Shown here one piece after another: positions 25,276 through 30,207 of a stretch of 64,000 nt of DNA. The position numbers and the translations under genes are program-made. Positions within the stretch are counted from its first letter, which is position 1. Each line of letters begins with the position of its first letter. Source of the DNA: an uncultured Lutibacter sp. (GTDB lineage Bacteria > Bacteroidota > Bacteroidia > Flavobacteriales > Flavobacteriaceae). Below the pieces are notes generated by a model. That model had not been told where the DNA came from, made no database searches, and worked only from the letters and a program-made list of their open reading frames with translations. The stretch is from contig NZ_CANLZZ010000003.1 of NCBI RefSeq assembly GCF_947495725.1, positions 490,341-554,340 on the forward strand. Direction: 5' to 3'.

Positions 25276-26133
25276 TTAAAGTACCATTTTTTCTATTGGA
25301 ACTACTAATAATCCTTCTGCTCCATTTGCTTTTAATTCATCTATTACTTCCCAAAATGAATTCTTCTCTACAACTGTGTGAATAGAACTCCATCCTTCTT
25401 CAGCTAAAGGTAAAACAGTTGGACTTCTCATTCCTGGTAGTAATTTAATAATGCTTTCAACTTTGTTATTTGGAGCATTCATTAATACATATTTAGATTT
25501 TCTCCCTTTTAAAACTGCATTAATTCTGAATTGTAATTTGTTTAAAATTTCTTGATTTTCGTCAGAAATTTTTGGTGAAACTGCTAAAACTGCTTCACTT
25601 GTCAGCATTTTCTCAACTTCTTTTAAGTTATTCTTAAACAAAGTACTACCACTTGAAACTATATCGCAAATTGCATCAGCTAAACCAATATTTGGTGCAA
25701 TTTCAACTGAACCATTAATAAGGTGAATATCTGGCTTTACATTATATTGTTTAAAGTAATTTACAACTGTATTTGGGTAAGATGTTGCAATTCTCATTCC
25801 ATCTAAATCTTGAATACTTTTATACTCCGCATCCTTTGGTACCGCTATTGAAACTCTACATTTAGAAAAACCTAATTTTTCTGCAATTCCAATATCAGTA
25901 CCTTTTTCAATTAATACATTTTCACCAATTATTGCTATATCAACTACACCATCTCTTAAATATTGAGGAATATCTCCATTTCGTAAATACAACACTTCCA
26001 TTGGAAAATTACTTGATGAAGCCTTTAATTGGTCTTTACCATTATCAATAGAAATACCACAATCTTTTAATAATTTTAATGAATCTTCGTTTAATCTTCC
26101 AGATTTTTGAACTGCGATTTTAATTTTGCTCAT
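25276..26133 (-). CDS. hisG: ATP phosphoribosyltransferase (long form)
   Basis: 285 aa, the long HisG form with a C-terminal ACT-like regulatory domain (about 210-285) that usually mediates histidine feedback inhibition, so no HisZ partner is needed. Blocks: KIAVQKSGRLNEDSLKLLKDCG, GDIPQYLRDGVVDIAIIGENVL, RIATSYPNTVVNYFK and the phosphoribosyl-binding GLADAICDIVSSGSTL. First structural gene of the operon, preceded by a His-codon leader peptide and attenuator, so it is controlled both by feedback and by attenuation. Confidence 0.97.
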   Translation of the reverse strand: MSKIKIAVQKSGRLNEDSLKLLKDCGISIDNGKDQLKASSSNFPMEVLYLRNGDIPQYLRDGVVDIAIIGENVLIEKGTDIGIAEKLGFSKCRVSIAVPKDAEYKSIQDLDGMRIATSYPNTVVNYFKQYNVKPDIHLINGSVEIAPNIGLADAICDIVSSGSTLFKNNLKEVEKMLTSEAVLAVSPKISDENQEILNKLQFRINAVLKGRKSKYVLMNAPNNKVESIIKLLPGMRSPTVLPLAEEGWSSIHTVVEKNSFWEVIDELKANGAEGLLVVPIEKMVL

Positions 26134-26180
26134 TTTTTTTTAATAATGTGTTTAAGTAAACTTACGTGATTTACAAATAA

Positions 26181-26209
26181 AAACCCGCTTGATTTACTCA
26201 AACGGGTTT
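26181..26209 (-). terminator. Attenuator terminator upstream of hisG
   Basis: On the minus strand: 12-bp stem AAACCCGTTTGA / TCAAGCGGGTTT (one G-U pair), loop GTAAA, then a T-rich tract (TTTTTATTTG). It lies between the His-rich leader peptide stop (26241) and hisG. Its 3' arm wording (AATCAAGCGGG) is duplicated at 10 of 11 positions inside the leader peptide gene (26245-26255), which supplies an alternative partner for the 5' arm, that is, an antiterminator. Confidence 0.88.
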
Positions 26210-26240
26210 ATAATATATTTTAATAATATTCAATACATCT

Positions 26241-26297
26241 TCAGCTCGCTTGATTACAAGAGTTTAAATGATGATGATGAAATTGAATAAATGTCAT
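26241..26297 (-). CDS. hisL: Histidine operon leader peptide
   Basis: 18 codons, MTFIQFHHHHLNSCNQAS then TGA, with four consecutive CAT histidine codons at positions 7-10. It starts about 12 nt after the predicted transcription start and ends 32 nt before the attenuator stem. Codons 15-17 (AAT CAA GCG) carry the sequence that can pair with the terminator's 5' arm. A ribosome stalled at the His codons would leave this segment free (antitermination); one that reaches the stop would cover it (termination). It acts through its translation, not its product. The His run, position and overlapping structure make chance very unlikely. Confidence 0.9.
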   Translation of the reverse strand: MTFIQFHHHHLNSCNQAS

Positions 26298-26315
26298 TTT
26301 TTTAATTTTGTGCTA

Positions 26316-26344
26316 CAAATATATAAAATTGTTTAAAACTTCAA
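26316..26344 (-). promoter_or_regulatory. Promoter of the his operon
   Basis: Minus-strand TTG (26342-26344), 18-nt spacer, then TATATTTG (26316-26323), a full match to TAnnTTTG. The leader peptide ATG follows about 18 nt after the box, so the 5' UTR is very short. Confidence 0.65.
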
Positions 26345-26541: not shown

Positions 26542-29500
26542 ATGATTCATTTCTTTGGAAACAAAAACAGTAAAATATTTGCTGTACAAACGTCAAAAGA
26601 ACTTTCGCAGGAAACCACTGAAAAATTAAATTGGCTATTTGGAAATCAACCAAAGATAAACGAGGCATCCATAGATGCTTTTTTTATTGGTCCACGTGCA
26701 GCAATGATAACTCCATGGAGTACCAATGCTGTTGAAATCACTCAAAATATGGGGATTGATGGAATTTTAAGAATTGAGGAATTTACTGCTTCAACAAAAA
26801 GTGAAGAATTTGATCCTATGATTTTTCAAAAATTTGAAAGTTTAAATCAAGATTTGTTCACCATTGATATAAAACCTGAACCTGTTCTTGAAATTAACGA
26901 TATTGAAGCGTACAATCAGCAAGAAGGATTATCTTTAAGTGAAGAAGAAGTTGAGTATTTAAATGGTATCAGTAAAAAAATTGGTAGAAAATTAACCGAT
27001 TCTGAAGTGTTTGGATTTTCACAAGTAAACTCAGAACACTGTCGTCACAAAATTTTTAACGGAACATTTGTAATTGATGGAGAAGAAATGCCTTCTTCCC
27101 TATTTAAACTTATTCGAAAAACTTCAGAAACTAATCATAACGGTATTGTTTCAGCGTATAAGGACAATGTTGCTTTTGTAAAAGGACCAATTGTAGAACA
27201 ATTTGCTCCAAAAACAGCAGACAAACCAGATTTTTATGAAAAGAAAGAATTTAAATCTGTCATTTCCTTAAAAGCAGAAACACATAACTTCCCTACAACT
27301 GTTGAACCATTTAATGGTGCAGCAACAGGTTCTGGAGGTGAAATTAGAGATAGGTTGGCCGGTGGAAAAGGATCTTTGCCATTAGCAGGAACAGCAGTTT
27401 ATATGACGTCTTATTCTCGTTTAAACGAAAATAGACCTTGGGAAAAAGGAATGAAAGAACGCGACTGGCTATACCAAACTCCAATTGAAATTTTAATTAA
27501 AGCATCCAATGGCGCTTCAGATTTTGGAAATAAATTTGGACAACCATTAATTTCGGGTTCTGTATTAACTTTTGAGCACGAAGAAGATACTAGAAAATTA
27601 GGATTTGATAAAGTAATTATGCAAGCTGGTGGAATTGGCTATGGAAAGGAAGATCAAGCATTAAAAGACACTCCTAAAGAACATGATAAAATTGTAATTT
27701 TAGGTGGTGATAATTATAGAATTGGAATGGGTGGTGCTGCCGTATCTTCTGCGGATACCGGTGCTTTTGAAAGTGGTATAGAGTTAAATGCTGTACAACG
27801 ATCAAATCCTGAAATGCAAAAAAGAGCCGCCAATGCCATTAGAGGAATGGTAGAAAGTGATGTTAATCCTATTGTTTCTATTCACGATCACGGAGCTGGT
27901 GGTCATTTAAATTGTTTGTCGGAATTAGTTGAAGATACTGGTGGATTAATCGATTTAGATAAATTACCTATTGGAGATCCTACACTTTCAGCCAAAGAAA
28001 TTATTGGAAACGAATCTCAAGAACGAATGGGATTGGTTATTGGAGAAAAGGACGCCGACTACTTGCATAAAATTGCAGATCGTGAACGCTCACCATATTA
28101 TGAAGTTGGTGAAGTAACTAGCGATGATAGATTTACTTTTAAATCTGGAACTACAGGTGAAAAACCTATGGATTTAGAAATGAACGATATGTTTGGAAGT
28201 TCGCCAAAAACTATTTTAACAGATAAAACTGTCGTTAGAAATTATCAAGAACTATCTTACTGTAAAGATGAAATATATAATTACATTAAACAAGTTTTAC
28301 AGCTAGAGGCTGTTGCTTGTAAGGATTGGTTAACAAATAAAGTAGACCGTTGTGTTGGTGGTAAAGTTGCCAAACAACAATGTGCCGGACCTTTACAATT
28401 ACCATTAAATGATGTTGGTGTAATGGCGTTGGATTATAATGGTAAAGAAGGTATTGCAACTGCAATGGGACACGCTCCAGTAAGCGCAGTTATTGATCCT
28501 GCTGCAGGTAGTAAAAATGCAATTGCCGAGTCTTTAACAAACATTATTTGGGCACCACTTCAAGATAAATTAGCATCTGTTTCTTTATCTGCAAACTGGA
28601 TGTGGCCTTGTAAAAATGAAGGTGAAGATGCTCGATTATATAAAGCTGTACAAGCAGTTTCTGAATTTGCTATTGATTTAGGTATTAATGTTCCAACGGG
28701 TAAAGATTCTTTATCAATGAAACAAAAATACCCTAATGATGAAGTGCTATCTCCTGGTACAGTAATAATTACAGCAGCTGGACATTGTGATGATGTAACT
28801 AAGGTAGTTGAGCCAGTCCTGCAAAAAAATGACTTAAACAAAATATACTACGTAAATTTATCTAAGGATAATTTTAAATTAGGTGGTTCATCTTTTGCAC
28901 AAACGCAAAATAAAGTTGGTACTGAAACTCCAACAATTAAAGATGCTGCTAGTTTTAAAAATGCTTTTAATACCATTCAACAATTAATTAAAGATGATAC
29001 TATTTTAGCAGGACATGATATTTCTGCTGGAGGTATGCTAACTACGTTGTTGGAAATGACCTTTGCTCAAGAGAATATTGGTTTAAACATTGATATTTCT
29101 GCTTTAAATGAAGCTGACACTGTAAAAGTATTATTTGCTGAAAATAGTGGAATTATTTTCCAAAGTGCTTCAAATGATGTTCCTCAAATTTTAAAAGAAA
29201 ACAATGTTGAATTTTTTGAAATAGGAAATGCAGTTGGAGGTGAATCAGTTAAAATCAAAAATAATGGAGAAGAATTAGAATTTAATGTTCCTGAATTACG
29301 AGACACTTGGTACGAAACTTCTTATTTATTAGATGATAAACAAACTGCAAACGGTTTAGCAAAAGATCGTTTTGATAATTATAAAAAACAACCTTTAAAA
29401 TTTACATTCCCAAAACATTTTACTGGAAAACTTCCTGAAATTGATGCAACCAAACCAAGACCTAAAGCAGCAATCATTCGCGAAAAAGGAAGTAATAGTG

Positions 29501-30207
29501 AACGTGAAATGGCTAATGCAATGTATTTAGCTGGGTTTGATGTAAAAGATGTTCATATGACCGATTTAATAAGTGGTCGTGAAACGTTAGAAGATATTCA
29601 ATTTGTTGGTGCAGTTGGTGGATTTAGTAATTCAGATGTTTTAGGTTCGGCAAAAGGTTGGGCTGGAGCATTTTTATACAATGAAAAAGCAAACACAGCT
29701 TTACAAAACTTCTTTAAAAGAGAAGATACACTTTCAGTAGGTATTTGTAACGGTTGTCAGTTATTTATGGAATTAGAAGAAATTAACCCAGAACACGAAG
29801 TTCACGGAAAAATGCTTCATAATGATTCTCACAAACACGAGAGTAATTTCACCTCTGTAACAATTCAAGAAAATAATTCTGTAATGCTTTCTTCTTTAGC
29901 AGGTAGTACATTAGGAGTTTGGATTTCGCATGGAGAAGGTAAGTTTAACCTACCTATGGAAGAAAGCGCTTATAATATTGTTGCCAAATATGGCTATGAA
30001 AGTTATCCTGCAAATCCTAATGGATCGGATTATAATACTGCTATGATGAGTAGTAAAGACGGCAGACATTTAGTTATGATGCCTCATATTGAACGTTCTA
30101 TATTCCAATGGAACTGGGCAAACTACCCAACTAATAGAAACGATGAAGTTTCTCCTTGGGCAGAAGCTTTTGTCAATGCTAGAATATGGATTGAAAAAAA
30201 TTCTTAA
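26542..30207 (+). CDS. purL: Phosphoribosylformylglycinamidine synthase, single-chain
   Basis: 1221 aa single-polypeptide FGAM synthase (purine step 4), combining PurS-, PurL- and PurQ-like parts; length is close to the roughly 1300 aa of the enterobacterial type. Order: PurS-like N-terminus, linker with SQVNSEHCRHKIFNG, two AIR-synthase-like halves (SLKAETHNFPTTVEPFNGAATGSGGEIRD, GDPTLSAKEIIGNESQERMG, VPTGKDSLSMKQ, LAGHDISAGGMLTTLLEM), and a C-terminal glutaminase from about residue 970 with nucleophile C1069 in SVGICNGCQLF and WISHGEGKF. A TAAATTTG box lies just upstream. It is divergent from the his operon; AICAR released by HisF links the two pathways. Confidence 0.98.
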   Translation: MIHFFGNKNSKIFAVQTSKELSQETTEKLNWLFGNQPKINEASIDAFFIGPRAAMITPWSTNAVEITQNMGIDGILRIEEFTASTKSEEFDPMIFQKFESLNQDLFTIDIKPEPVLEINDIEAYNQQEGLSLSEEEVEYLNGISKKIGRKLTDSEVFGFSQVNSEHCRHKIFNGTFVIDGEEMPSSLFKLIRKTSETNHNGIVSAYKDNVAFVKGPIVEQFAPKTADKPDFYEKKEFKSVISLKAETHNFPTTVEPFNGAATGSGGEIRDRLAGGKGSLPLAGTAVYMTSYSRLNENRPWEKGMKERDWLYQTPIEILIKASNGASDFGNKFGQPLISGSVLTFEHEEDTRKLGFDKVIMQAGGIGYGKEDQALKDTPKEHDKIVILGGDNYRIGMGGAAVSSADTGAFESGIELNAVQRSNPEMQKRAANAIRGMVESDVNPIVSIHDHGAGGHLNCLSELVEDTGGLIDLDKLPIGDPTLSAKEIIGNESQERMGLVIGEKDADYLHKIADRERSPYYEVGEVTSDDRFTFKSGTTGEKPMDLEMNDMFGSSPKTILTDKTVVRNYQELSYCKDEIYNYIKQVLQLEAVACKDWLTNKVDRCVGGKVAKQQCAGPLQLPLNDVGVMALDYNGKEGIATAMGHAPVSAVIDPAAGSKNAIAESLTNIIWAPLQDKLASVSLSANWMWPCKNEGEDARLYKAVQAVSEFAIDLGINVPTGKDSLSMKQKYPNDEVLSPGTVIITAAGHCDDVTKVVEPVLQKNDLNKIYYVNLSKDNFKLGGSSFAQTQNKVGTETPTIKDAASFKNAFNTIQQLIKDDTILAGHDISAGGMLTTLLEMTFAQENIGLNIDISALNEADTVKVLFAENSGIIFQSASNDVPQILKENNVEFFEIGNAVGGESVKIKNNGEELEFNVPELRDTWYETSYLLDDKQTANGLAKDRFDNYKKQPLKFTFPKHFTGKLPEIDATKPRPKAAIIREKGSNSEREMANAMYLAGFDVKDVHMTDLISGRETLEDIQFVGAVGGFSNSDVLGSAKGWAGAFLYNEKANTALQNFFKREDTLSVGICNGCQLFMELEEINPEHEVHGKMLHNDSHKHESNFTSVTIQENNSVMLSSLAGSTLGVWISHGEGKFNLPMEESAYNIVAKYGYESYPANPNGSDYNTAMMSSKDGRHLVMMPHIERSIFQWNWANYPTNRNDEVSPWAEAFVNARIWIEKNS

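What the first reader, a model, noticed from the sequence alone, without database searches (positions are those of the whole stretch)
26172..26344. Complete histidine attenuator with a His4 leader peptide and a mimic-based antiterminator in a Bacteroidota his operon
Promoter, 18-codon leader with four consecutive CAT codons, and a 12-bp terminator lie in order before hisG. The terminator's 3' arm (CCCGCTTGATT on the plus strand, 26184-26194) is repeated at 10 of 11 positions (CTCGCTTGATT, 26245-26255) inside the last codons of the leader peptide. That copy can pair with the terminator's 5' arm. A ribosome stalled at the His codons leaves the copy free and blocks the terminator; a ribosome reaching the TGA covers it and lets the terminator form. 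The design is simpler than the enterobacterial his leader, because the competing strand is coding sequence next to the stop codon.
Basis: partly seen in the sequence, partly recalled or inferred. Interest (0 to 1): 0.75.

Follow-up and report, generated by a model that had tools for sequence, protein, structure and literature searches.

The report
Histidine-starvation switch before his operon
In front of its histidine-making genes this bacterium carries a short gene with four histidine codons in a row followed by a terminator-like hairpin, a layout found at most of the related his operons examined, and it is predicted to let a ribosome that stalls for lack of histidine keep the genes switched on, a known kind of switch seen here in many families of Bacteroidota.

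Summary
A TAnnTTTG promoter-like box, an 18-codon leader (MTFIQFHHHHLNSCNQAS) and a 12-bp terminator precede hisG-D-C-B-H-A-F-IE. The leader end copies the terminator 3' arm at 10 of 11 positions, the only such copy in the 64-kb window. His-rich leaders lie upstream of 203 of 218 hisG loci, against 1 of 218 antisense controls. In 184 distinct leaders, folding of unfinished RNA with a ribosome on the first His codon lets the leader pair with the terminator 5' arm in 181; with the ribosome on the stop codon, in 5. The copy covaries with the arm at one main position and is kept through changes of reading frame, so RNA rather than peptide is conserved. Ribosome-mediated attenuation is well supported by comparison; there are no RNA data. 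The same genome has Trp- and Val/Ile-rich leaders with terminators before trpE and ilvD. No Rfam family matches at threshold. Leader-peptide attenuation in a flavobacterium has been noted in print. New member of a known kind.

The parts
26316..26344 (-). promoter-like element: TTG (26344-26342) and TAnnTTTG -7 box TATATTTG (26323-26316)
   Evidence: sequence; a TAnnTTTG box lies 15-110 nt before the first His codon in 99 of 184 loci, against 137 of 1840 shuffles
26241..26297 (-). leader ORF MTFIQFHHHHLNSCNQAS, stop TGA 26243-26241
   Evidence: His leaders in 203 of 218 hisG upstream regions
26268..26279 (-). four CAT (His) codons, predicted stall site
   Evidence: ribosome-position profile by folding
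26272..26289 (-). segment 1 (predicted): leader codons that can pair with 26243-26227 (possible protector stem)
   Evidence: moderate support
26245..26255 (-). segment 2: copy of the terminator 3' arm (AATCAAGCGAG) in the last leader codons; predicted antiterminator strand
   Evidence: pairs 26253-26247 and 26245 with 26206-26198
26227..26243 (-). stop codon and post-leader segment: predicted partner of segment 1 without a ribosome; part of it (26239-26232) pairs with 26219-26212 in the predicted antiterminator
26212..26219 (-). AU-rich partner that extends the predicted antiterminator stem
   Evidence: window only; conservation not tested
26198..26209 (-). segment 3: terminator 5' arm AAACCCGTTTGA
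26175..26192 (-). segment 4: terminator 3' arm TCAAGCGGGTTT (26192-26181) and T-rich tail
25276..26133 (-). hisG, first gene of the operon
   Evidence: TIGR00070
18856..25251 (-). hisD, hisC, hisB, hisH, hisA, hisF, hisIE

Best explanation
The segment encodes a leader peptide with four consecutive His codons followed by a terminator-like hairpin before hisG, and it is predicted to be a ribosome-mediated transcription attenuator of the his operon. When charged tRNA-His is scarce, the ribosome would stall on the CAT codons and leave the end of the leader (TCAAGCG) free to pair with the terminator 5' arm (CGTTTGA) before RNA polymerase has made the 3' arm, so transcription would run on into hisG. 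When histidine is plentiful, the ribosome would reach the stop codon, cover TCAAGCG, the terminator would form and transcription would end near 26175. Without a ribosome, stems within the leader may hold the copy back, so that the default would be termination. Shown here: the anatomy, its conservation and the covariation. Inferred: translation of the leader, stalling, the kinetic competition, termination itself and the response to histidine.
For: His leaders in 203 of 218 upstream regions against 1 of 218 antisense and 14 of 2072 other windows. With a loose scan, leader plus downstream terminator in 154 of 157 loci of the near set and 43 of 61 loci from other families of the class. Masked-ribosome folding of unfinished RNA over 184 distinct loci: >=5 bp to the 5' arm in 181 with the ribosome on the first His codon, 183 on the third, 5 at the stop. 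Own pairing reaches >=7 bp in 170 of 184, against 21% of 1104 dinucleotide shuffles and 28% of 1104 swapped arms; for 46 loci with other arm sequences, 35 against 24% and 29%. The pairing falls off six to eight codons after the first His. Covariation over 79 sequences: antiterminator 12 double-change cells (0 of 500 shuffles as high), terminator 26 double-change cells at 6 of 12 pairs (0 of 500). The copy is in another reading frame in 7 of 79 loci by the script and holds a stop codon in 2. E. coli his and trp, run the same way, also pair the arm upstream while the ribosome is on the regulatory codons.
Against: No RNA data. In full-length RNA the terminator wins even with a stalled ribosome (>=5 bp to the 5' arm in 2 of 184). 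The plain duplex test is weaker than the masked fold: own pairing lies in the best 5% of swaps in 100 of 184 loci and beats every swap in 49. Only 2 of 8 antiterminator pairs show double changes (63 of 500 shuffles reach that); further pair types are reached by 172 of 500; a one-column slide reaches a covariation score of 0.119 against 0.129. An A-C mismatch sits in the copied pairing in 66 of 79. In the window 3 to 4 bp of pairing to the arm remain with the ribosome at the stop. The protector stem beats 95% of shuffles in 50 of 183 loci, the small hairpin in 50 of 153; among 14 Lutibacter-type loci the stem does so in 7, and in 4 without the His codons. By the loose scan 11 of 61 loci from other families have a His leader but no terminator, and 7 no His leader. 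The related sequences are not independent.
Confidence: 0.88

Rival explanations
1. The hairpin is a plain, unregulated terminator or the end of a small RNA, and the His ORF is incidental.
For: The terminator wins at equilibrium in every state folded for the window.
Against: The upstream neighbour is a divergent ORF (26542-30207 on +), so no gene close upstream on this strand needs terminating; leader and terminator occur together in 154 of 157 near-set loci; the leader end tracks the terminator arm.
Confidence: 0.04
2. The leader acts at translation or by ribosome reinitiation on hisG rather than by transcription termination; PMC4833913 (abstract and passages) proposes that leader genes close to a start codon raise translation.
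For: 11 of 61 loci from other families have a His leader without a terminator that the scan found, so another output may exist there.
Against: Here the leader stop lies 107 nt before hisG with a 12-bp hairpin and T-rich tail between; terminator pairing is kept by double changes.
Confidence: 0.05
3. The conserved C-terminus (QAR, QAS) is a functional peptide motif, for example an arrest peptide.
For: QAR, QAS or QAW end 93 of 145 leaders of the near set.
Against: The same nucleotides appear in another frame as SSEL, SNEL or SSEC in L186, L188, L189 and L199, with a stop inside in L183 and L214 and in L081 (sequence).
Confidence: 0.02
4. A T-box or other ligand-binding RNA controls hisG.
For: T-boxes control his genes in Firmicutes (PMC9413887, passages).
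Against: No Rfam family reaches its gathering score anywhere in the window.
Confidence: 0.01

Closest known systems
E. coli his attenuator (Rfam RF00514 His_leader)
   Same: His-codon leader and terminator before hisG; the arm pairs upstream in unfinished RNA with the ribosome on the His codons (8.9-11.0 bp)
   Different: No match over the Rfam cut-off: window 31.2 bits against 49, 0 of 60 family genomes. Seven His codons and a terminator arm starting 56 nt after the stop, against four and 28 in this calculation. The contrast at the stop is weak there (6.9 bp). Here the antiterminator strand lies in the last leader codons.
E. coli trp attenuator
   Same: Pairing of the arm upstream with the ribosome on the Trp codons (5.0-5.1 bp) and none at the stop; terminator wins at full length
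   Different: Its segment 2 lies just after the stop (recalled); here it is coding sequence before the stop.
Bacteroid-trp RNA (RF01692)
   Same: Candidate RNA of Bacteroidetes; [quoted passage not shown] psychrophilum and likened to the E. coli trp leader (PMC6414381, passages)
   Different: Different operon; no match in this genome. In PMC2864571 only the table entry and reference-list passages were seen.
His attenuators of Firmicutes (PMC9413887, passages)
   Same: Leaders with three to five His codons before his operons, with terminator and antiterminator
   Different: Reported for the Bacillus cereus group, Eubacteriales and Erysipelotrichales; 'Bacteroidetes' does not occur in that paper's main text.
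F. psychrophilum leader-peptide attenuators (PMC9723704, passages)
   Same: 'Strong clues' for leader-peptide attenuation upstream of amino-acid biosynthesis operons in a flavobacterium
   Different: 'histidine' and 'his operon' do not occur in the main text; its supplementary list was not read (no look-ups allowed), so his may be among them.

Membership tests
Ribosome-mediated transcription attenuator | short leader ORF with a run of codons for the operon's own amino acid | tested here: met
   four CAT codons before his genes; 203 of 218 loci. That it is translated was not tested.
Ribosome-mediated transcription attenuator | intrinsic terminator shape between leader and first gene | tested here: met
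   26209-26181, covarying
Ribosome-mediated transcription attenuator | alternative pairing of the 5' arm that depends on ribosome position | tested here: met
   by folding only: 181 of 184 at first His, 5 of 184 at stop; controls
Ribosome-mediated transcription attenuator | protector stem in the absence of a ribosome | tested here: inconclusive
   window 3.3% of 400 shuffles as good, 40.5% without His codons; best 5% in 50 of 183 loci
Ribosome-mediated transcription attenuator | histidine-dependent termination in the cell | not testable with these tools
   needs RNA 3'-end mapping and starvation
Rfam RF00514 His_leader | score above the gathering cut-off of 49 bits | tested here: not met
   31.2 bits; 0 of 60 genomes over cut-off with the stricter filters used there, 4 of 60 below it; among 14 controls E. 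coli and C. glutamicum ring, one over the cut-off
Rfam RF01692 Bacteroid-trp | match in the genome | tested here: not met
   0 matches in own genome; the Bacteroides control is over the cut-off
T-box riboswitch | Rfam match upstream of hisG | tested here: not met
   no family at gathering score in the window

The most novel reading that the evidence does not exclude
Leader-peptide attenuators whose antiterminator strand is the frame-indifferent end of the leader gene are the ancestral and default control of his operons across the class around Flavobacteriaceae (Bacteroidia in GTDB terms, recalled), with sister switches on trp and ilv, which would mean that ribosome and RNA polymerase are closely coupled in Bacteroidota.
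Probability: 0.45. Interest if true: 0.6.

Novelty: new member of a known kind. Interest (0 to 1): 0.45.

Why it matters
It gives a testable his regulator for a large phylum, with no Rfam family matching at threshold, and with alignments and predicted base pairs ready for mutation. Classical attenuation needs a ribosome close behind RNA polymerase. Whether that holds in flavobacteria, which lack Shine-Dalgarno sequences (PMC9723704, passage), can be asked directly with these leaders. That attenuation is thought to be disfavoured where the two machines are uncoupled is recalled, not read here.

Tried and rejected
Column-by-column covariation of the protector stem was not attempted: by eye its register differs between clades, so it was tested per sequence, with partial support. 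A first version was spoiled by empty segments and its A:B averages are not used. In one search sixteen minus-strand loci were read in the wrong orientation; one search repeats them, and relocates hisG in 217 of 219 loci by tblastn (L166 and L173 were placed by coordinates). The strict scan (leader and terminator in 189 of 217 loci) missed plain terminators such as L008, L066 and L077; the looser scan (stem >=5, 4 T of 6) finds them and also admits weaker hairpins; of its 11 leader-only loci, L124 and L129 show by eye an imperfect hairpin. Dropped rows: L020 (short upstream); five duplicates among 110 loci noted but not removed from the count; 189 picks reduced to 184 distinct; 150 near-set sequences of suitable length reduced to 79 at <0.86 similarity. 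Of 123 family genomes with hisG, 77 were read (75 through, two through); of 62 class genomes of other families with hisG, 61 were read (G161, split over two contigs, was not). The 80 named records are best matches whose family was not checked one by one. The thrA-like locus L223 has a Thr-rich ORF but no terminator was found after it.

Full report
What is there. The minus strand of 26344-26175 reads TTG - 18 nt - TAnnTTTG, an 18-codon ORF MTFIQFHHHHLNSCNQAS with four CAT codons, and a 12-bp hairpin with a T-rich tail, followed 47 nt later by hisG. The genes behind it are hisG, D, C, B, H, A, F and IE by NCBIfam. The best named HisG match is Lutibacter agarilyticus (94% in the best segment); Lutibacter belongs to Flavobacteriaceae, Bacteroidota. 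The copy of the terminator 3' arm in the leader end is unique in the window.

Conservation. I read the upstream regions of 218 hisG loci: a near set of 157 (80 best-matching named records, 30 and 48 loci of the family, less L020) and 61 from 31 other families of the class as grouped by the genome collection. A His-rich ORF is present in 203, against 1 in the antisense strands and 14 of 2072 other windows. With the looser scan, leader plus terminator in order is found in 154 of 157 and 43 of 61; 11 of 61 have only the leader, and 3 of 157 and 7 of 61 have no His leader by the rule. By family, 26 of the 31 other families have a His leader and 23 have leader plus terminator; by the strict scan 39 of 61 loci in 22 families. 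The three near-set exceptions (L026, L178, L210) show by eye a leader with fewer or scattered His codons and a terminator.

Mechanism by folding. I folded the RNA up to the terminator loop, before the 3' arm exists, with 27 nt masked as a ribosome. With the ribosome on the first His codon the 5' arm pairs with the leader end in 181 of 184 distinct loci (>=5 bp), on the third in 183, at the stop in 5, without a ribosome in 91. Shuffled leaders reach >=7 bp in 21% and swapped arms in 28% of trials, own pairs in 170 of 184; among 46 loci with other arm sequences the figures are 35 of 46 against 24% and 29%. The plain duplex test separates less well: own pairing in the best 5% of swaps in 100 of 184. 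Moving the ribosome codon by codon, >=5 bp is kept in 90% of loci at the fifth codon after the first His, 41% at the sixth, 18% at the seventh and 9% at the eighth. In the window the predicted antiterminator is TCAAGCG with CGTTTGA, one further G-C pair and a second AU stem.

Covariation and frame. In 79 near-set sequences the seven-base copy forms >=6 of 7 pairs in 76. The position that varies most is 84/151: A-U 35, G-U 27, G-C 11, unpaired 6. 94.9% of antiterminator cells pair, against at most 51.6% when slid by 1-3 columns. Only 2 of 8 antiterminator pairs show double changes, a number reached by 63 of 500 shuffles; the count of double-change cells (12) is reached by 0 of 500 and the covariation score by 4 of 500. 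The terminator has double changes at 6 of 12 pairs. These shuffles do not correct for relatedness. The script puts the copy in another frame in 7 of 79 loci and finds a stop inside it in 2; L186, L188, L189 and L199 are clear, while in L177, L195 and L205 the ORF call itself may be at fault.

What counts against a tidy story. With the 3' arm present the terminator wins at equilibrium (>=5 bp of antiterminator in 2 of 184 with the ribosome on the first His codon). The E. coli his and trp leaders show the same in this calculation; there the contrast between regulatory codons and stop is clear for trp (5 against 0 bp) and weak for his (about 9-11 against 6.9 bp). The test is therefore a consistency check, and the switch must be kinetic. 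The protector stem is moderately supported: in the window 3.3% of 400 shuffles are as good, 40.5% without the His codons; 7 of 14 Lutibacter-type loci reach the best 5% with and 4 of 14 without the His codons; 50 of 183 over the whole set.

Wider setting. The same genome has MKNSNLNIIWWWNSLMQ plus a terminator before trpE and MKQTIINIISVVVVVIISQTD plus a terminator before ilvD. Folding gives the same contrast: trp 6.7 bp on the Trp codons against 1.8 at the stop, ilv 10.0 on the Val codons against 0.6. Among the 30 loci fetched for each, Trp leaders occur in 29, 28 with a terminator after them; Val/Ile/Leu-rich ORFs in 20 ilvD loci, 11 with a terminator, by a loose rule without a control.

Literature. 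Ten searches were made. PMC9723704 (passages) reports clues for leader-peptide attenuation before amino-acid operons in F. psychrophilum; PMC7366714 (passages) mentions leader-like short ORFs in B. thetaiotaomicron; PMC2965389 and PMC9413887 (passages) describe His leaders in Firmicutes. In these searches of an open-access library I saw no description of a Bacteroidota his attenuator; subscription papers and supplements were not searched. Hence: new member of a known kind.

Noticed in passing
L220 (own genome, upstream of trpE, G000:C4): Leader MKNSNLNIIWWWNSLMQ with three Trp codons and a terminator; 29 of the 30 trpE loci fetched from the family have such a leader. RF01692 does not match.
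   Followed up: partly
L228 (own genome, upstream of ilvD, G000:C2): Leader MKQTIINIISVVVVVIISQTD whose end (GATTAGGAA, across the stop codon) can pair with the 5' arm of the following terminator.
   Followed up: partly
L223 (own genome, upstream of an aspartokinase gene, G000:C3): ORF ending ITMRNFTIATTTTITL, Thr-rich like E. coli thrL (recalled), with no terminator found after it.
   Followed up: no
L143, L145, L148, L149, L162, L169-L172: His leaders without a terminator found by the scan; in L169, L171 and L172 the His codons and stop appear by eye to sit in a hairpin, so another output or a weaker terminator may operate.
   Followed up: no
window 26246 against 26205 (alignment A1 columns 88 and 147): An A-C mismatch inside the copied pairing is kept in 66 of 79 sequences; it may tune antiterminator strength or serve the small hairpin on the copy.
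   Followed up: no
L012, L089, L092: His leaders with a quite different terminator (GTCCTTCCTGA...TCAGGAGGGAC) whose match to the leader end is no better than swapped arms in the duplex test.
   Followed up: partly
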